This document shows positions 54,991 to 62,562 of a DNA stretch of 64,000 nucleotides, one piece after another. The DNA is from Halococcus agarilyticus (lineage in GTDB: Archaea > Halobacteriota > Halobacteria > Halobacteriales > Halococcaceae), in assembly GCF_000334895.1 (NCBI RefSeq), contig NZ_BAFM01000010.1, forward strand, positions 1-64,000, given 5' to 3'. Positions within the stretch are counted from its first letter, which is position 1; every line of letters starts with the position of its first letter. The notes beneath the pieces were generated by a model. The model had not been told where the DNA came from. It saw nothing but the letters and a program-made list of their open reading frames with translations, and did no database searches. A program made the position numbers and the translations under genes.

Positions 54991-55012
54991 CTAGAGTATT
55001 GGATTGTGTCAT

Positions 55013-55723
55013 GTGACCGAATCAAAGACGACAAATCCGAATGGAGATACACGAAACCGTCGACAGGCCGGTTTGGACGCCGGTACCCTCCACAAATCGG
55101 GTATCGTGTTCGTATTCACAGTCCTCTTGGCTCTGTTCGCCGTCGTTCGTCTCCCCGCTTCGGTCGTGGTTCTCTGGGACGCAAGCGGGAATTCGGTAGT
55201 CACGCTGTCTACACCGACGGCTGTCGCTTCGGTGCTGGTTGTTCAGGTGATCCTCCTTGGCGTATTCGCCATCGCGCCGCGGGTCAACAGAATCGAGAAA
55301 ACGGTAGCGTCGGTTCGCGATGCGTATCAGTGGACTGCCTTCGCACTGGTGAGTCTCGTGTTGCTCGTCTTCGCGACGATCGTCGCGTGGAATAGCGGTC
55401 TGCAGTTCGGCGGTGGACAGCCTCTCTCGACGCGGATCGGGGCGCTGGTTGTCGCTATCCTGCTGTACAGTGGTTCGAAAGCGTTGCCGGTCCTCGAACA
55501 GAACCGGTTGGTCGGAATCCGCTCGCCGTGGACGATGAGCGACGAGACGGTCTGGAACCGGACCCACGATCACGCAGTTCCGTTCTTCAAAATCATTGCC
55601 GTCATCGCGGCCCTCGCCGCCGCCGCTCCGTCGGTGATAGTCGCTCTCGTACTCATCGTCGTCCCGTTCCTCTCGGTGCTCGGGTATCTGTACTACTACT
55701 CGTATCGTCTCTACGATGGGTGA
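55013..55723 (+). CDS. SdpI-family membrane protein, candidate immunity protein
   Basis: A 236-residue protein starting at GTG 55013, fixed by its promoter. About six membrane helices are present. The signature NRLVGIRSPWTMSDETVWNRTHD (about residues 165-187, read in parts) is diagnostic of the SdpI family, whose Bacillus founder protects against the SDP peptide toxin. It converges with the RiPP-like operon and shares its accessory surroundings. An immunity role is inferred from family and location; other family members have no known toxin. Confidence 0.8.
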   Translation: MTESKTTNPNGDTRNRRQAGLDAGTLHKSGIVFVFTVLLALFAVVRLPASVVVLWDASGNSVVTLSTPTAVASVLVVQVILLGVFAIAPRVNRIEKTVASVRDAYQWTAFALVSLVLLVFATIVAWNSGLQFGGGQPLSTRIGALVVAILLYSGSKALPVLEQNRLVGIRSPWTMSDETVWNRTHDHAVPFFKIIAVIAALAAAAPSVIVALVLIVVPFLSVLGYLYYYSYRLYDG

Positions 55724-56084
55724 GACGCGGTTCCCGGACGCCGCTCACGCATCGGTGCCGGACACCGTGTCCGTGAGGCGGCCAGCCGTGATTCGAGACC
55801 GTCTCTTGTTTCGTGGACATCCGGGACGATCCGACCAGCCGTCGAAAGCGGTCGGTGTCGTCGTCGCTGGGCCAGCGTGGTCGGAGCACCTACTGATCGT
55901 CGGATCGGCGTACCCTCCATGCGAGCAAGCCGTCCCCCGACTCACGGCGACGCTGGCAAGTGACCGCGTACGGAACCAGTCCGGCCCCGTCGGTACCCGG
56001 CGTCTCTCCAGCCGAACATGGCGAAAACCGGACGTCACAGGGGCCGATACGACGACCGGCACTGCCGACCACGCGGTGACGTGC
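55724..56084. other. Gap between converging SdpI gene and ABC permease gene
   Basis: This space of about 360 bases contains only frames without clear coding character. One plus-strand frame starts within the SdpI stop (55716) but runs antisense into the permease gene, so it is doubtful. No strong hairpin or repeat was seen. Confidence 0.45.
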
Positions 56085-56891
56085 TCACGTCGCCGGGAGG
56101 ATGTCCTCGGTATCAAACCGGGTCGTTACCCAGTAGCCACAGATCGCGATCAGACACAGAATCGAGACGATCGAGGCCAGTGAGAACAGGAGCAGATTCA
56201 GATTGGGGAACAGATTAACGAGAATAGTCAACGCTAGACCGGGGATGATTCCGACGGCGCTAAACAGATCTTGAACGCCATCGGACAGGTCGCCACCAAT
56301 TCCCATCGACCCGAGGATGACGACGAGATTCGCCCAGATAGCAGTCGGGAGCGGGAGGAGAAACGCGGGAAGAAGTGTCGCGTTCAGCTGGGAACCGAGC
56401 TGTGCGCCCATCGAGAGGAGCACAGCGATCGGAATCCCGAGTGCGACCAGGGCGAACGAGAACACCTGTAGCAAGGTGACGAGGGTCGTCGACACCAGCA
56501 GCGAGTTGAACACCTGTCGCTCGTGGTACGGGGAACTGAGCAAGAGCTCGAACTGGCCACTGGAGATCAGATTTCCCGCCATGCGCTGCCCGGTGTTCAC
56601 TCCCAGCACACTCGAGAACGTCGCGAGGAGGTACGGTCCCTGGATCAGAAACAGCGCCAGCGCGAAGGCGTACTCGCTGTTTTGCGTTTCGAAGTAGAGT
56701 CCCACGAGTCGCTGGACGCTCCGTCTCGTCGTCGGCGTCACCGATCCCGGAGAACCGATACTCACCACGGTGATCCCCCCAAACACCACGGCCAAAAACA
56801 GCGGCATGGCGAACAGTTTGAGCCGCCGGGAGTGCAGTTGCTGCCACACCAGCGCCTCCGAGAGGTCGATCGTTTCGGTTTCGTTACTCAT
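56085..56891 (-). CDS. ABC transporter permease (operon gene 7)
   Basis: A 268-residue membrane protein with six hydrophobic segments and a cytosolic N-terminus, similar in layout to ABC-2-type permeases that export lipids, drugs or peptides (residues 95-130 contain the LFLIQGPYLLATFSSVLG helix). Its start overlaps the ABC ATPase stop by eight bases. It is the last gene of the minus-strand operon that begins with the precursor peptide. Peptide export or self-protection is the inferred role. Confidence 0.8.
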   Translation of the reverse strand: MSNETETIDLSEALVWQQLHSRRLKLFAMPLFLAVVFGGITVVSIGSPGSVTPTTRRSVQRLVGLYFETQNSEYAFALALFLIQGPYLLATFSSVLGVNTGQRMAGNLISSGQFELLLSSPYHERQVFNSLLVSTTLVTLLQVFSFALVALGIPIAVLLSMGAQLGSQLNATLLPAFLLPLPTAIWANLVVILGSMGIGGDLSDGVQDLFSAVGIIPGLALTILVNLFPNLNLLLFSLASIVSILCLIAICGYWVTTRFDTEDILPAT

Positions 56892-57792
56892 AGTTCGCCT
56901 CGATGTTCTTGTACAGTGATTTGACGGAGTTCTCCATCATCTTCACCTCTCGAACGTTGATGCCGTCTCGTGCGAGCCTCGTGACGAGATCGCTCATCTC
57001 GGTCTCCGGTCGCTTGGTCACGACCACGTACGAATCTTCGACCGCCGGTTCGTAGCCCTCGCTCTCGAGGGCCTGGCGAGCTGCATCGGTATCGACAGCC
57101 TCGAAACCGATGGTCGGTCGTTCGAAGGCGCGGTCACGGACCTCCTCGATGCTTCCGTCGAACACCAGTTGGCCGTCCCGCATTATGAGCAGACGTTCCG
57201 CCAGGTCGTCTGCCTCGTTCAGGTCGTGGGTCGAATAGATGACCGTCTGTGTCTTGCCCAGCTGATCGAGATAGGAACGGATATCCTGTGCGATCATCGG
57301 ATCGAGTCCGGTCGTCGCCTCGTCGAGAAACAACACTGACGGGTCCGGAAGGAGCGCCTGTCCTATCGATGCACGCTGGGACTGCCCACGGCTCAACTCG
57401 CCAGCGTTACGATCCAAAAGTTCGCGGAAATCGAATCGGTCCGCCAGCTGCTCGATCCGGTCGGAGACAGTTTCCGTCGGGAGGTTCTGTACCTTCCCCC
57501 AGAACCTGAGATTCTGCCGCACCGTCAACCCGGTGTTGAGAACCGGACGATGTGGGAGGTAACTCACGTCCCGTTTCACGCTCGCTTCTTCGTACGGGCT
57601 CCGCCCGTCGACCAAAACCGTGCCCTCGTCGGGCTCCAGAATCCCGCACCCACAGCGAAACAGCGTGGTCTTCCCGCAGCCGTTCGGGCCGAGGAGGACA
57701 TTGAAGCCCCGATCCAACTCGAGAGTCACGTCGTCGAGGACGCGCAACGACTTGTATCCTGCCGTCACCGAAGAGTAAGCGATACCGGTCAT
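56884..57792 (-). CDS. ABC transporter ATP-binding protein (operon gene 6)
   Basis: A 302-residue ATPase with Walker A GPNGCGKTT (residues 35-43), signature LSRGQ (133-137), Walker B VLFLDEATTGLD (153-164) and a switch His in YSTHDLNEAD. A roughly 80-residue C-terminal extension resembles those of ABC-2 exporters. Its ATG overlaps the stop of the 42-residue ORF by four bases. No peptidase C39 domain is present, so leader removal must be done elsewhere. Confidence 0.93.
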   Translation of the reverse strand: MTGIAYSSVTAGYKSLRVLDDVTLELDRGFNVLLGPNGCGKTTLFRCGCGILEPDEGTVLVDGRSPYEEASVKRDVSYLPHRPVLNTGLTVRQNLRFWGKVQNLPTETVSDRIEQLADRFDFRELLDRNAGELSRGQSQRASIGQALLPDPSVLFLDEATTGLDPMIAQDIRSYLDQLGKTQTVIYSTHDLNEADDLAERLLIMRDGQLVFDGSIEEVRDRAFERPTIGFEAVDTDAARQALESEGYEPAVEDSYVVVTKRPETEMSDLVTRLARDGINVREVKMMENSVKSLYKNIEANYE

Positions 57793-57917
57793 CCGTATTT
57801 ACTCCAGTCACGACGATCGTTCGCCGGAGCGATCGGATATCCGAACGTAGGCGGTGTTCCATCGACGCCTCCGGCTGGTCCGTTTCGTCTTCCGTGGGTC
57901 CGTGTTGTTGTACTCAT
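57789..57917 (-). CDS. 42-residue ORF in the operon (gene 5)
   Basis: ATG 57917 lies three bases after the stop of the DUF3887-like gene, and its TGA overlaps the ABC ATPase start (ATGA). The product, about MSTTTRTHGRRNGPAGG...DRRDWSKYG, is basic and Gly/Pro-rich, unlike usual acidic haloarchaeal proteins. Tight coupling on both sides argues for a real gene. It might be a second peptide substrate, an RNA- or lipid-binding helper, or a translational linker. The evidence is positional only. Confidence 0.55.
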   Translation of the reverse strand: MSTTTRTHGRRNGPAGGVDGTPPTFGYPIAPANDRRDWSKYG

Positions 57918-57920
57918 TGT

Positions 57921-58652
57921 TTATCCGTCTCGAATTCGAAGCGTACCGATCGCACCGTCATCGGTGACGGTAACGAAGAATTCCTTCGAACCGCTGGCGT
58001 CCGCGAGAGCCAGTTGAATCACGTCCCGCTTTTTACACATGGCTTCGATACCTTCGAACGAGTCGATATGTGTGGTCCATCCCGACTCGATGTCGGCCAC
58101 CGTTACCTGCTCTTTGAGTTCCGCAGTGAGCATCTCGTACACCGTCTGGAACTCCCCCTGGTCGAGCAAGTCGACGACGTCCGTGACGATGTCGTGTTCT
58201 CGCTCCGTGAGTTCCTGCTTTCGGTTGCGGAGTCTGCCGGTGATAGACGACACTTTGGATTTGCCCAGTAGCCCTACGTCACCGAGGGAGTCCAGCAAGC
58301 CCACGTCCTTGTCTTTAAAAATATACAGCCCCTTCGGATCCGCGTTGTCTGTGTAGAATATCTGAATTTTGAACGGCTCGTCGCCGAAATTTCCGTACGC
58401 CTCGACGGCCCGCTCTGACGAGTCCATATCGGTTTCGTCCGATAAGTCCGGGTCGACGACGATTTCGTCCACGCCTGCGAAGTGGCCGTGTACGTCTTCG
58501 GTCTTTTGCCATGCCGATGTAATCTGAGTCGCCGCCGCCTGGCCGAAACTTGTGATACTGTCGCGCGTTCCGGTGTCCAGAGACCCGATAATGTCCCTGG
58601 ATTTCTTCTCCAGCAGTTCACCTGGTAACTCGTTCTCATTGTTTTCTGTCAT
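57921..58652 (-). CDS. DUF3887-like protein (operon gene 4)
   Basis: A 243-residue soluble acidic protein. The C-terminal 110 residues (VVDLLDQGEFQTVYEMLTAEL, VTVADIESGW, then FFVTVTDDGAIGTLRI) match the DUF3887 pattern of a cystatin/NTF2-like fold. The N-terminal half has a distinct alpha/beta region with FKIQIFYTDNADPKGLYIF. Its start lies 17 bases inside the upstream membrane gene, so the two are coupled. It may bind the precursor or product; this is inferred. Confidence 0.7.
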   Translation of the reverse strand: MTENNENELPGELLEKKSRDIIGSLDTGTRDSITSFGQAAATQITSAWQKTEDVHGHFAGVDEIVVDPDLSDETDMDSSERAVEAYGNFGDEPFKIQIFYTDNADPKGLYIFKDKDVGLLDSLGDVGLLGKSKVSSITGRLRNRKQELTEREHDIVTDVVDLLDQGEFQTVYEMLTAELKEQVTVADIESGWTTHIDSFEGIEAMCKKRDVIQLALADASGSKEFFVTVTDDGAIGTLRIRDG

Positions 58653-59346
58653 TAATATACCTCTTATTAAATACAGATTTAAATTTTATTGTTATAAATA
58701 TGGCCAAGAGCAAGACGAGCGGCCCACAGACGATTTTCGCCGCCCGTTTCGTAGATACATCCCAGGCGGCCGACCCCATCTTGATCCAGTTTACACCCGT
58801 CCAGACCACCGCTATGGGATAGAGGATATTCGTGAATCGCACGACGGTAAAGGACTGGATTATCGAGGAGCGCGCCTGAACGAGTTCTACGGACTCAGGG
58901 GCCGAGATCTGCGTGATAGCGAACAGCGTCGCGGCCGTCCCGAGGAGTGAACTGAGGACGTACGGTATCATCCCGACACCCGTCAACCAGACGGTCGCTC
59001 TCAAATCGACATCGATGAAGCTCAACGTCGCGATCACGTAGAACGCGACAGCCGTCCCGATCCAGACTGCAAGCGGTAACAGGACGGCAGTCACAGCCGA
59101 GATGAGATAGATATTCGTCGTCGAGCCGGGAAGGACGGGCGCTACCCACCTGACACTCGCTATCGCACTGACGAGGTTCGATACAGCAGCCAGTAGGACG
59201 ATCGCCGCTGGCGTCCGAAGTTGATCCAGTTCCTGCCGGTCGACGATCTCTCGCAGATCGAACAGAAGATCGAGAACCAGGGGGACTGGGTTTTTATACT
59301 GTTTATTTGTCATTGTTGCGGTGTTCTTGCGGTTGTGGCCGAACAT
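58636..59346 (-). CDS. Yip1-like membrane protein (operon gene 3)
   Basis: A 236-residue protein with five membrane helices and the Yip1-like pattern WIGTAVAFYVIATLSF followed by VGMIPYVLSSLLGT. ATG 59346 gives a 22-nt gap after the radical SAM gene; ATG 59313 (MTNKQYKNP) is an alternative. The base composition is lower in GC than core genes. In the peptide operon it may help membrane insertion, export or immunity, but nothing in the sequence decides this. Confidence 0.75.
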   Translation of the reverse strand: MFGHNRKNTATMTNKQYKNPVPLVLDLLFDLREIVDRQELDQLRTPAAIVLLAAVSNLVSAIASVRWVAPVLPGSTTNIYLISAVTAVLLPLAVWIGTAVAFYVIATLSFIDVDLRATVWLTGVGMIPYVLSSLLGTAATLFAITQISAPESVELVQARSSIIQSFTVVRFTNILYPIAVVWTGVNWIKMGSAAWDVSTKRAAKIVCGPLVLLLAIFITIKFKSVFNKRYINDRKQ

Positions 59347-59368
59347 TGGGTGGTAGTCGACTCCGTGG

Positions 59369-60448
59369 TCAGGTTCTGACTTTGTCGTCGGTCCCAGTCA
59401 CATCGATGTCATCGAGCTTTCGCATGATTTCGTCTTTGTTCTCGGCGAGCCGGGCGACGTTCTTTTCGGTACGATCGCTGAGGAACACGTCGCTTTTGAT
59501 GAGTTCCGTCCGATTTTCGCGGACGTATTCGAGAAACTCGTCTCGGTAGTCACCCAGCAGATCGTGACAGGCGTGGCAGATGCCGGTGTACTCGACTGCC
59601 GGGTCGACGCCCATGCGATCGAGGAGCCGTTTCGGTCCGACCTCGTGTATGAGCCAGTAGACGAGATTGTCCTGCGAGTTCTGGATGATATTGACCAGCG
59701 AGTCCTCTTTCAGGTTCCCCATCGTGAGGTCGGGGCGATAGAACTGGGCGTGACCACAGCAGACTTTGACCGACCCGTCCGGGTGAATCGAAAAGGTGCT
59801 AACGACGTCGCGACACCCGACGTCGACGTCTTTGACTGCGGAGTACCTGCTGGGGTCCAGCTGGATGCCCGAACCCATCGGCGCGGCCGCGTCTTGGAGG
59901 GTGTGTAGCTTTCCGATTTCACCGACCGGGCGACCGACCCGTTCTTCGATGGCTGCTTCCATCCGCTCTAGGTCGTACTCGGGCTCCTCGCTACCGATGA
60001 TACAGGCCAGCGCAACAGCGCTGAGTTCATCGTACTCCAGGGACGCCTCGATCATGTTCACGATGTTCTCGAAGTCCATGTACTCCGTGTGGAAATCGTC
60101 GTAGCTGGTGTTGATCTCGTCGAGGCCTGCGTCAACGAGGTCCTGGAGCATATCGTGGGTGTTATCCATATCGTGCGCCCACCAGGCGTTCGTGACGATT
60201 CGGGTGTTGAGACCCGCTTCGGAACATCGTTCGATTCCTTCGAGGAGCTTGTCCTTGTGAAGCGTACATTCACCGCCGGTGAAACACACCAGCTGGAGCG
60301 TGTCGAGGGTCTCAAGTTCGTCGAACACGTCCCCCCGCAAGTCGTCCGGCATTTCGAATTTCGTTTCCGGACTGCTCCCCACGCTACAGTGATCACAGGC
60401 GAAGTTACACTGATAGTCGAGAAACACCGAAACTGACGTTGGAATCAT
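59369..60448 (-). CDS. Radical SAM/SPASM peptide-modifying enzyme (operon gene 2)
   Basis: A 359-residue radical SAM protein with the cluster motif CNFACDHC (Cys14, Cys18, Cys21) and the SAM-binding FTGGECTLH. A C-terminal SPASM-like region has Cys ligands in VGCRDVVSTF, VKVCCGHAQF and ICHACHDLLG. Such enzymes form thioether or carbon-carbon links on peptides. No N-terminal RiPP recognition domain is seen, since the cluster motif comes at residue 14. It follows the precursor gene by 65 nt in the same operon. Confidence 0.9.
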   Translation of the reverse strand: MIPTSVSVFLDYQCNFACDHCSVGSSPETKFEMPDDLRGDVFDELETLDTLQLVCFTGGECTLHKDKLLEGIERCSEAGLNTRIVTNAWWAHDMDNTHDMLQDLVDAGLDEINTSYDDFHTEYMDFENIVNMIEASLEYDELSAVALACIIGSEEPEYDLERMEAAIEERVGRPVGEIGKLHTLQDAAAPMGSGIQLDPSRYSAVKDVDVGCRDVVSTFSIHPDGSVKVCCGHAQFYRPDLTMGNLKEDSLVNIIQNSQDNLVYWLIHEVGPKRLLDRMGVDPAVEYTGICHACHDLLGDYRDEFLEYVRENRTELIKSDVFLSDRTEKNVARLAENKDEIMRKLDDIDVTGTDDKVRT

Positions 60449-60513
60449 TACTGTTTTGATGTTGATTGGTATCGTTTGAATTGGATTCAGTTAGTGTGAA
60501 CACCGAGTACCGC

Positions 60514-61047
60514 CTAGTAGTGCCCGGTCGTCACAGTCGTGTTCACAGCGGCTCCCACCGTCGCGGCGACGCCTGCGGCGGCGGCGGCGACCACGACCAC
60601 GACAGCTGCGACACACGCTGCGACTGCGGAACATGCGATGTGGCCATCGACAACCGGCGTCTCGGCGTTGCTGGCTTCCGCCATCGAATCGATCTGGGAG
60701 TCGATCTCGATGAGCGCCTCGACATCGTCCTTGGACAACGTGTACTCGTTTGCCTCTTCGGCGAGCTCCTCAATGGAGACGCTGTCGATATCCTCGACGC
60801 CCTGCATGTTGAGAGCTTCCTCGAACTCCTTCGTGCAGAGGTCGGTATAGGAGTCGAGAACCTCGTCCGAGATGGTCTCCTCAGTCACGAGCTCGGAGAT
60901 CTCCTCTTCGTCGAAGAGTCCACTAAAGTAAACGGAGGAACTCACGATTTCGGCCTTGAACGGGTCTATATCGGTCTTGAATTCCCCGTTGTGTGCGATG
61001 CTCTGCGAGTGATCTACATTTTCGGACCCAGTTACTGCCGTGGGCAT
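60514..61047 (-). CDS. Putative RiPP precursor peptide (operon gene 1)
   Basis: A 177-residue protein with a very acidic N-terminal part (1-130; many Asp/Glu, one Cys at 71) and a sharply different C-terminus. It runs HIACSAVAACVAAVV, then a long run of Val/Ala/Gly, and ends NTTVTTGHY. Cys139 and Cys145 sit at the start of the hydrophobic part. The layout fits a leader plus a membrane-active core of about 40-45 residues. It directly precedes a radical SAM/SPASM gene and ABC genes. The leader is long for a RiPP, so the exact cut site is unknown. Confidence 0.7.
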   Translation of the reverse strand: MPTAVTGSENVDHSQSIAHNGEFKTDIDPFKAEIVSSSVYFSGLFDEEEISELVTEETISDEVLDSYTDLCTKEFEEALNMQGVEDIDSVSIEELAEEANEYTLSKDDVEALIEIDSQIDSMAEASNAETPVVDGHIACSAVAACVAAVVVVVAAAAAGVAATVGAAVNTTVTTGHY

Positions 61048-61066: not shown

Positions 61067-61080
61067 AATAATTAAATAGT
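61067..61080 (-). promoter_or_regulatory. TATA box of the peptide operon
   Basis: Minus-strand actatttaattatt is centred 27 nt before ATG 61047, predicting a leaderless mRNA. The gap 61048-61141 is AT-rich and contains no gene, so this is the main promoter of the seven-gene operon. Confidence 0.65.
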
Positions 61081-61141: not shown

Positions 61142-61653
61142 ATGAACAAGCAGTCAGCACAAGTCTTCCTGCCACCGCGTGAGCGATGCTTTGAGTGTCT
61201 CCGTCTCGCCCGGTTCGGCGAGACGGTGACATGTGTCCACTGCGAGAAAGACGCTGTCGTCAAGCGAGGGACGACCAGCAAAGATGCCCAGCAATACTGG
61301 TGTAAGGCGTGCGAGACCTACTTCAACGACCTCACTCACACGCTCTTCGGCCAGCATCGGTTCGCCCTAGAAGAGATGTTCTACATCGTCAAGGAAATGC
61401 GATCTAAGCCGACCACTCAAATCGCTCGGGACCTCGGTCGAGATTACGAGGCTGTCCTCAACTTCGTTCACACAGTCCAGGACGTGGGCGGTGATATCGA
61501 TGAAATCGCCATAGCTTCCTTCGTCAGTGACTGGTGAAGTTCCGAGGTATCTCAAAACGTCACCTCCAGAAATACCCTGGCTTCCTCGAACTGAAGCTCA
61601 ACTCACCGAACGACAGCTTCGAGAATTTGCTGTGGTACGATGTATTGGGATGA
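61142..61653 (+). pseudogene. IS1595-type transposase, internally deleted
   Basis: The N-terminal frame (61142-61537) gives a zinc-ribbon region (CFECLRL, CVHCEKDAVVKRG, YWCKACETYF) and a helix-turn-helix (TTQIARDLGRDYEAV), typical of IS1595-family transposases. It ends at TGA in a different frame from the C-terminal end (61537-61653, GISKRHLQKYPGFLELKLNS...YDVLG). The DDE catalytic middle, about 130-150 codons, is missing. The element is dead and lies immediately upstream of the peptide operon. Confidence 0.8.
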
Positions 61654-61868: not shown

Positions 61869-61967
61869 ATAGGGATTAGCAGTGGTGTTCGGGGGTTCGT
61901 TCCAGAAATCGAGCTACCCGAGGGGCCACTCTCGATGGGATCTATGGGAATAACTGCTAATCCCTAT
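61869..61967. mobile_element. 99-bp MITE-like inverted-repeat element
   Basis: Perfect 15-bp inverted ends, ATAGGGATTAGCAGT (61869-61883) and ACTGCTAATCCCTAT (61953-61967), enclose 69 bases without coding features. The right end supplies the stop codon of the gene at 61957-62562. The structure suits a miniature transposon or a long 3' hairpin. The larger gap 61654-61868 holds no clear gene. Confidence 0.55.
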
Positions 61968-62562
61968 AGCCGTGCGTCCCCGTGGTCGGTGTGGTCCCGC
62001 TGAGGGCATCTCGTCCCGTCTGTAGTGTGTGGTCGCAACTCTCCCGTATAGCTTTCCTCTCCGATGCAGGGTAGTCTTCGACAACATCTCTCACGTCGTC
62101 TAGCGTCGTTTTCACATCGCCCTGGATCGCTTCTACCGTGGTTCGAGTATCGTCGGTGAGTTCGAGGTTTGTCAGAAAGCACTCGTAGGTACTGTGTTCC
62201 AGTAACCCTCGCGCGACAACCCCGGCACCGATGCGTTCCGCAGTTTCGTTCCGCGTGCGGAGGTGGTCGTAGACCGCTCCCCCGGAAGAAGGATGGTATT
62301 CGCCCGACAGACAGGACCCGAACCGCTCCAGATGCTGCTGTTTTCTGTCCGCGAGAACAGCGAACAACTCCCGTGCTCGATCGTCGGGTTCGCTGAATGT
62401 CCACTGAGAGTACAGCGACTTCGCACCGTAGAGACCGTTACACGCCAATTCGATGGCTCCTCGCTCGTCGGATGGGGATTCGAGAAGTGCTAATAGCCAC
62501 TGCTCCGAGTGATACAGGTCGAACGCCATCTCGTTAGCGGTCCGAATTTCGGTCAAATCCAC
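61957..62562 (-). CDS. All-helical protein, unknown
   Basis: A 201-residue protein starting at GTG 62562, 25-27 nt after an AT-rich TATA region (62582-62592). It is mostly helical with many Glu/Arg/Leu residues, no signal and no membrane helix. The first half (MAFDLYHSEQWLLALLES, GAIELACNGLYGAKSLYSQW, ELFAVLADRKQQHLERF) suggests a ferritin-like or four-helix bundle. Its stop codon lies in the inverted-repeat end at 61957, so the last residues may have been altered by that element. Not recognised. Confidence 0.65.
   Translation of the reverse strand: MDLTEIRTANEMAFDLYHSEQWLLALLESPSDERGAIELACNGLYGAKSLYSQWTFSEPDDRARELFAVLADRKQQHLERFGSCLSGEYHPSSGGAVYDHLRTRNETAERIGAGVVARGLLEHSTYECFLTNLELTDDTRTTVEAIQGDVKTTLDDVRDVVEDYPASERKAIRESCDHTLQTGRDALSGTTPTTGTHGYRD

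What the first reader, a model, noticed from the sequence alone, without database searches (positions are those of the whole stretch)
56085..61047. Seven-gene operon resembling a haloarchaeal RiPP (halocin-like) system
Seen in sequence: one minus-strand unit holds a precursor-like gene, a radical SAM/SPASM gene, a Yip1-like membrane gene, a DUF3887-like gene, a 42-codon ORF, an ABC ATPase and an ABC permease. Most genes overlap or nearly touch, and one TATA box lies ahead of the first. Known: Bacillus skf operons combine a precursor, a radical SAM enzyme, a membrane protein and an ABC ATPase/permease pair to make and export a killing peptide. Inferred: this is an archaeal counterpart with different accessory parts. 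I know of no described archaeal system with this set.
Basis: partly seen in the sequence, partly recalled or inferred. Interest (0 to 1): 0.92.

Follow-up and report, generated by a model that had tools for sequence, protein, structure and literature searches.

The report
Haloarchaeal epipeptide-like peptide-toxin gene cluster
A salt-loving archaeon carries a small, rare gene cluster that probably makes a membrane-active peptide whose amino acids are flipped from L- to D-form by a radical enzyme, plus its own protection genes; the enzyme type is known from Bacillus, but I found no description of such a cluster in archaea.

Summary
The operon is real. Six of the seven genes are supported; the 42-codon ORF probably is not a gene (GC3 0.44 against 0.66-0.77, not conserved), and a convergent SdpI-family gene (55004-55723, +) belongs to the unit. 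The radical SAM enzyme is not SkfB-like. Its only solved relative is the Bacillus peptide epimerase YydG/EpeE, and it keeps all seven cluster cysteines and the catalytic Cys223 equivalent (C231) in 8 of 8 haloarchaeal homologues. The precursor (about 130-aa acidic leader, about 42-aa Val/Ala-rich core, usually CX5C) and the enzyme are strictly paired: the same 5 of 391 haloarchaeal genomes, plus 3 further loci. ABC ATPase, permease, Yip1-like and DUF3887-like genes recur with the pair in three loci, in shuffled order. The ABC pair plus SdpI also occurs alone in another family (82-88% DNA identity), and five producer loci lack the ABC pair, so ABC plus SdpI looks like self-protection rather than a dedicated exporter. 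Best reading: an epipeptide-like RiPP system making a D-amino-acid, membrane-active peptide. Epimerisation, processing and killing are inferred, not shown. A resemblance of the core to SdpC toxin was mostly compositional. New variant of a known kind, apparently undescribed in archaea in the library searched.

The parts
61068..61076 (-). TATA-like promoter element (TTTAATTA), 29 nt upstream of the first ATG
   Evidence: Sequence; similar AT-rich boxes lie ahead of precursor genes in the other loci.
60514..61047 (-). Gene A: 177-aa precursor; acidic ~135-aa leader with conserved N-terminal AVxxxxxxDHxxS motif, hydrophobic Val/Ala-rich C-terminal core HIACSAVAACVAAVVVVVAAAAAGVAATVGAAVNTTVTTGHY with CX5C
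   Evidence: Seven homologues, each next to the radical SAM gene; profile search finds it in the same 5/391 genomes as the enzyme. Leader/core boundary is predicted, not measured.
59369..60448 (-). Gene B: YydG/EpeE-like radical SAM/SPASM enzyme, predicted peptide epimerase; C14/C18/C21 (SAM cluster), C212/C230/C291/C294 (auxiliary cluster), C231 (H-atom donor position)
   Evidence: TIGR04078 8e-35; only PDB relatives 8ai1-8ai6, YydG, E 1e-29 with profile; cysteines invariant in 8/8.
58636..59346 (-). Gene C: Yip1-like membrane protein with ~4 predicted membrane segments (alternative start 59313); role unknown, perhaps immunity or processing
   Evidence: PF04893; homologues in L037 and L038; hydropathy.
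57921..58652 (-). Gene D: soluble protein of two tandem DUF3887/NTF2-like domains; perhaps binds the hydrophobic peptide
   Evidence: PF13026; L037/L038 orthologues; AlphaFold model, mean pLDDT 70.5, two alpha-beta repeats; match to DUF3887 structure 4hyz. DUF3887 fused to a hydrolase sits next to the enzyme in L032 and L034.
57789..57917 (-). ORF E, 42 codons: probably not a gene
   Evidence: GC3 0.44, no homologue in L037/L038; the corresponding stretch of L065 is a decayed hydrolase gene.
56884..57792 (-). Gene F: ABC transporter ATPase
   Evidence: PF00005 7e-28; 59% identity in L037/L038, 92% in L065.
56085..56891 (-). Gene G: six-TM ABC permease
   Evidence: No Pfam family above cut-off; 46%/42% to L037/L038, 89% to L065; 6 of 391 genomes.
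55004..55723 (+). Gene H: SdpI-family membrane protein, convergent with the operon; probable immunity protein
   Evidence: PF13630 2e-14, above cut-off; 76% identical and colinear next to F-G in L065; SdpI family present in only 35/116 haloarchaeal genomes, usually one copy.

Best explanation
An epipeptide-like RiPP cluster. Shown by sequence: a dedicated long precursor (A) strictly paired with a YydG/EpeE-type radical SAM/SPASM enzyme (B), and a separable ABC transporter (F, G) + SdpI (H) module. Inferred: B uses SAM to abstract C-alpha hydrogens from residues in the Val/Ala-rich C-terminal core and returns a hydrogen from C231 on the other face, giving D-residues. The leader is then removed by a protease not identified in the operon, a disulfide may form across CX5C, and the released ~40-aa hydrophobic peptide inserts into the membranes of competing cells. 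SdpI and the ABC pair (and perhaps the Yip1-like protein C and the DUF3887 protein D) protect the producer or handle the peptide. Likelihood by step: B modifies A, 0.9; the modification is epimerisation, 0.65; the product is an antagonistic membrane-active peptide, 0.65; F-G-H are immunity rather than dedicated export, 0.6.
For: A and B occur in exactly the same 5 of 391 Halobacteria genomes and are adjacent in all 8 loci. B's only PDB relative is YydG/EpeE (E 1e-29 with profile; best NCBIfam TIGR04078 8e-35). All seven cluster cysteines and the Cys223 equivalent are invariant in 8/8 and in more distant bacterial relatives (one bacterial sequence shows a gap at the three SAM-cluster columns), while outgroup SPASM enzymes lack the second Cys; Cys223 is the proposed H-donor (PMC8326336). 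F+G+C+D recur with A+B in L037 and L038 in a different order. F+G+H occur without A/B in L065 at 82-88% DNA identity, and F-G with a convergent DUF3784 gene in L066. SdpI or DUF1648 genes also neighbour bacterial relatives of B in Thermus, Klebsiella and Collinsella. In the Klebsiella and Thermus clusters the core is Asn-alternating and the neighbouring methyltransferase resembles 7rc2-7rc6 (those entries are, from memory, the aeronamide Asn N-methyltransferase AerE), which fits an epimerase role for the wider family. Patchy distribution, low GC, a plasmid location in Halocatena and transposase remnants fit a mobile antagonism module.
Against: B scores 121 bits against an equivalog cut-off of 300, so it is not YydG itself. 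The precursor is unlike EpeX (177 versus about 50 aa). No EpeP-type protease. G shows no sequence similarity to the Macrococcoides epe permease. No mass, activity or transcript data. SdpI is next to the cluster only in the window and L065, not in L037/L038. In Bacillus the analogous ABC pair contributes little to resistance against added peptide (PMC7026026).
Confidence: 0.6

Rival explanations
1. Sactipeptide/skf-like system: B forms Cys-to-C-alpha thioethers in the core, the ABC pair exports the killing peptide.
For: Precursor + rSAM/SPASM + membrane protein + ABC pair; CX5C in six cores and CX4C in a seventh.
Against: B's family is YydG, not SkfB; the L031 core has no Cys at all; the ABC pair is absent from five of eight producer loci.
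Confidence: 0.12
2. SDP-like toxin: A is a divergent SdpC-type toxin with SdpI immunity, and B adds a minor modification.
For: Weak TIGR04032 matches for five precursors (11.1-15.5 bits); SdpI next door.
Against: Cut-off is 99 bits; 3 of 6 core-shuffled controls also match (10-13 bits), so the match is largely composition. No SdpA or SdpB-like gene in the operon.
Confidence: 0.1
3. Non-antagonistic role: the modified peptide is a signal, cofactor or membrane-stress component.
For: No activity shown; DUF3887/hydrolase partners could belong to a peptide-processing pathway; rSAM/SPASM enzymes also make cofactors (general knowledge).
Against: Rare patchy distribution, orphan ABC+SdpI modules and recurrent small membrane proteins (SdpI, DUF3784) point to toxin/immunity.
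Confidence: 0.15

Closest known systems
Epipeptide locus epeXEPAB (yydFGHIJ) of Bacillus and other Firmicutes
   Same: Order precursor - YydG-type rSAM/SPASM - further membrane gene(s) - ABC ATPase - ABC permease; all seven cluster Cys and Cys223 conserved; ABC pair postulated as immunity (PMC7026026).
   Different: Precursor 177 aa with a long acidic leader and Val/Ala-rich CX5C core instead of ~50 aa; no EpeP protease; extra Yip1-like, DUF3887-like and SdpI genes; permease unrelated by sequence; host is an archaeon; enzyme below the TIGR04078 cut-off.
YydG-like rSAM clusters with long precursors on bacterial plasmids (Thermus, Klebsiella, Collinsella, Streptomyces, Lactococcus, Enterococcus)
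   Same: 23-29% identical enzyme with the same CCG motif, long precursor (about 170-300 aa) just upstream, SdpI/DUF1648 neighbours in three.
   Different: Precursors not recognisably similar; cores often Asn-alternating with a methyltransferase; no shared ABC pair.
skf operon (sporulation killing factor) of Bacillus subtilis
   Same: General logic: precursor, rSAM/SPASM enzyme, membrane protein, ABC ATPase/permease (recalled, as in the finding).
   Different: Enzyme family differs; a Cys-thioether cannot be the shared chemistry because the L031 core has no Cys.
SDP toxin/immunity system (SdpC, SdpI)
   Same: SdpI-family gene next to the operon; hydrophobic core with two close Cys.
   Different: SdpC model not passed and largely reproduced by shuffled cores; no SdpA/SdpB.
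Proteusins (polytheonamide, aeronamide)
   Same: Very long leader, Val/Ala-rich hydrophobic core, radical SAM epimerisation as inferred.
   Different: [quoted passage not shown] no NHLP leader match for the haloarchaeal precursors.

Membership tests
YydG/EpeE peptide epimerase | CX3CX2C radical SAM motif | tested here: met
   C14, C18, C21 invariant in 8/8.
YydG/EpeE peptide epimerase | Auxiliary cluster cysteines and catalytic Cys223 | tested here: met
   C212, C230, C291, C294 and C231 align with the EpeE residues and are invariant in 8/8.
YydG/EpeE peptide epimerase | TIGR04078 equivalog cut-off (300 bits) | tested here: not met
   120.7 bits, E 8e-35; L031 102.6. A true member (Macrococcoides) scores 434.6.
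YydG/EpeE peptide epimerase | Makes D-residues in the precursor | not testable with these tools
   Needs mass spectrometry / chiral analysis.
epeXEPAB epipeptide locus | Short EpeX/YydF-type precursor | tested here: not met
   177 aa, no YydF-family match.
epeXEPAB epipeptide locus | Membrane protease EpeP/YydH | tested here: not met
   No peptidase family in the operon; C is Yip1-like.
epeXEPAB epipeptide locus | ABC ATPase + permease pair in the operon, permease related to EpeB | tested here: inconclusive
   Pair present but permease not similar to the Macrococcoides one; the profile holds only three sequences.
skf system | SkfB-type thioether-forming enzyme, Cys-containing core | tested here: not met
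   Best families/structures are YydG; L031 core has no Cys.
SdpC toxin (TIGR04032) | Score over 99.2 bits | tested here: not met
   15.5 bits; 3 of 6 shuffled cores score 10-13.
SdpI family (gene H) | PF13630 over gathering score | tested here: met
   53.8 bits against 28.2.
SdpI immunity function (gene H) | Protects against the cluster's peptide | not testable with these tools
   Only synteny with F-G.
DUF3887 (gene D) | PF13026 over gathering score / DUF3887 fold | tested here: inconclusive
   26.1 against 31.8 bits; fold match to 4hyz with probability 1.00, TM 0.60 by target length, but E 0.08.
Yip1 domain (gene C) | PF04893 over gathering score | tested here: inconclusive
   26.3 against 28.6 in the window; orthologues 46.2 and 34.8.

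The most novel reading that the evidence does not exclude
Haloarchaea make ribosomal D-amino-acid peptides: a mobile two-gene core (long Val/Ala-rich precursor + YydG-type epimerase), part of a family that also lives on bacterial plasmids, builds a multiply epimerised, membrane-spanning killing peptide. SdpI/DUF3784 proteins and a swappable ABC pair serve as immunity that spreads on its own.
Probability: 0.4. Interest if true: 0.85.

Novelty: new variant of a known kind. Interest (0 to 1): 0.7.

Why it matters
The archaeal RiPPs described from experiment in the papers read here are lanthipeptides; radical SAM RiPP clusters in archaea are listed there only as predictions (PMC12144867), and I found no archaeal epipeptide in the searched library. 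If right, this gives a concrete, testable archaeal system for ribosomal D-amino-acid peptides. It would extend the YydG enzyme family to haloarchaea and to long precursors, and suggest functions for SdpI, DUF3784, DUF3887 and Yip1-like genes in archaea. The separate immunity-only locus makes the toxin/immunity hypothesis directly testable between strains.

Tried and rejected
SdpC-type toxin: weak TIGR04032 match, rejected after core-shuffled controls gave similar scores. Alternating D/L (beta-helix-like) periodicity of the cores: no signal in the window core (p 0.77), weak in L033 and L032 (p about 0.01, among several tests), strong only in the Thermus precursor. AlphaFold of the precursor: useless (pLDDT 42). 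Single-sequence scan of genome contigs: no relatives; the alignment scan worked. Viral contigs: only 27% identity over about 115 residues. YydG-like enzyme elsewhere in the phylum at E<=1e-25: only the window genome in a 295-genome draw. Permease versus the Macrococcoides epe permease: no similarity. Distant homologues of F-G in L067-L069 (30-43%) have no other part of the system nearby and were set aside as unrelated ABC pairs.
Full report
OBSERVATION. Family searches confirm a radical SAM/SPASM protein, an ABC ATPase, a Yip1-like membrane protein and a DUF3887-like protein; the permease has no Pfam family above cut-off. Two corrections follow. The 42-codon ORF has GC3 0.44, against 0.66-0.77 for its neighbours, has no counterpart in the two loci with the same operon, and in L065 its place is taken by the tail of a decayed alpha/beta-hydrolase gene. 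It is probably not a gene. Just past the permease, convergent, lies an SdpI-family gene (55004-55723, +; PF13630 2e-14) that belongs to the unit, as shown below. The segment 54-63 kb has GC 0.54-0.61 against 0.655 for the window, and a truncated IS1595-type transposase lies just upstream (61142-61537).

THE ENZYME. The best NCBIfam model is TIGR04078, YydG-family peptide epimerase (8e-35, 121 bits, below its cut-off of 300). Against all PDB sequences the only relatives at the thresholds used are the YydG/EpeE entries 8ai1-8ai6 (9e-20 with the protein, 1e-29 with an eight-sequence profile). In that alignment chain residue 26 is Met1 of EpeE, so chain 247/248 are Cys222/Cys223. They align with C230/C231 of the window enzyme. 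Cys223 is the proposed H-atom donor of EpeE; [quoted passage not shown] C14, C18, C21, C212, C230, C231, C291 and C294 are invariant in all eight haloarchaeal sequences. The CC pair is also present in eight bacterial relatives, whereas haloarchaeal SPASM outgroups have one Cys there.

THE PRECURSOR AND ITS PAIRING. In a draw of 391 Halobacteria genomes, strong homologues of B occur in five (window, L031-L034), and a scan of GTDB species genomes adds Halorussus halobius (two loci, L036 and L037) and MAG QS_1_68_17 (L038). Each has a homologue of A next to B. A profile of A finds strong matches in exactly the same five of 391 genomes and nowhere else. The N-terminus (A-V-x6-D-H-x2-S) is conserved across all eight; the leader is about 125-135 aa and acidic, the C-terminal core is hydrophobic and Val/Ala-rich. 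Six cores have CX5C, L036 has CX4C and L031 has no Cys, which rules out a Cys-thioether as the shared modification.

ACCESSORY GENES. L037 and L038 hold A, B, F, G, D and a Yip1-like C, but in another order: A-B-F-G-D, with C upstream in L037 and downstream on the other strand in L038. The same six genes recurring in shuffled order is good evidence of a functional set. The other five loci lack F, G, C and D as such. L032 and L034 instead carry DUF3887 fused to an alpha/beta hydrolase next to B, and L032, L033 and L034 have a small DUF3784 membrane protein nearby. D itself is predicted as two tandem DUF3887/NTF2-like domains and resembles the DUF3887 structure 4hyz.

IMMUNITY MODULE. The permease profile hits 6 of 391 genomes. 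In L065, from another family, window 55012-57896 (H, G, F) is colinear at 82-88% DNA identity with a decayed hydrolase upstream and no A or B. L066 has F-G plus a convergent DUF3784 gene. SdpI-family genes occur in only 35 of 116 haloarchaeal genomes, usually once, so the repeated adjacency is unlikely to be chance. ABC + SdpI (or DUF3784) thus behaves as a transferable module that can exist without the toxin genes and is not needed by most producers. This fits immunity better than dedicated export, although export is not excluded. In Bacillus the ABC pair YydIJ was postulated as autoimmunity but proved a minor determinant (PMC7026026).

WIDER FAMILY. On bacterial plasmids B has relatives at 20-29% identity over most of its length. 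Beside the true epe locus of Macrococcoides there are clusters with long precursors. In Thermus, Klebsiella and Collinsella an SdpI or DUF1648 gene is a neighbour, the precursor core is Asn-alternating (Thermus p 0.0005), and a methyltransferase follows. For Klebsiella and Thermus its best PDB match is 7rc2-7rc6, which from memory are structures of AerE, the aeronamide Asn N-methyltransferase; AerE and its homologue PoyE act on, or prefer, one stereo-form of Asn (PMC11285071, where the prefix letters are lost in the text). This supports, indirectly, an epimerase role for the wider enzyme family.

MECHANISM. Most likely: B epimerises residues in the Val/Ala-rich core of A; the leader is removed; a disulfide may form; the peptide acts on membranes; SdpI and the ABC pair protect the producer. 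Shown: pairing, enzyme family, catalytic residues, shuffled conserved gene set, separable ABC+SdpI module. Inferred: epimerisation, processing, export, killing, immunity. Not identified: the leader protease and the exporter.

COMPARISON AND NOVELTY. It works like an epipeptide system but is not a member of the epeXEPAB family: the precursor type and protease were tested and not met, and the enzyme is below the equivalog cut-off. The skf and SdpC assignments were tested and not met; for SdpC, 3 of 6 core-shuffled controls also matched. Literature searches found predicted archaeal rSAM RiPPs (sactipeptides, ranthipeptides; PMC12144867) but no archaeal epipeptide or SdpI-linked rSAM cluster. The library is open-access only, so absence is not proof.

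Noticed in passing
L044:2599-6074, L045:4865-8084, L048:3415-7176 (Thermus, Klebsiella, Collinsella plasmids): Clusters with a long precursor bearing an Asn-alternating core, a YydG-like rSAM enzyme, a methyltransferase (Klebsiella and Thermus: best PDB hit 7rc2-7rc6) and an SdpI/DUF1648 gene; looks like a polytheonamide-type pathway built on a YydG-type epimerase.
   Followed up: partly
L065:7099-10401: Immunity-like remnant: SdpI, permease, ATPase closely similar to the window (82-88% DNA) with a decayed alpha/beta-hydrolase gene and no precursor or rSAM gene.
   Followed up: yes
L032:10090-10272 (-) and L034:11473-11664 (+): Small (60-63 aa) proteins with a twin-Arg-like N-terminus and a Cys-containing C-terminus ending in ...VADMQIPA / ...VAQMAISA beside the DUF3784 and hydrolase genes of two loci; function unknown.
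   Followed up: no
window 61142-61537 (+): Truncated IS1595-type transposase (zinc-ribbon part, weak match) directly upstream of the operon promoter.
   Followed up: partly
window 61957-62562 (-) and L031:11824-12423 (+): Homologous ~200-aa proteins without a Pfam family (41% identity over 113 residues) lie near the cluster in two haloarchaea of different families.
   Followed up: no
L031:12551-17697 and L037:13415-18985: Two differently composed clusters sit beside the same conserved chromosomal neighbourhood in two genomes, suggesting turnover of cluster content at one site.
   Followed up: partly
window 58640-58700: AT-rich, TATA-like stretch at the end of gene C before gene D, a possible internal promoter.
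   Followed up: no
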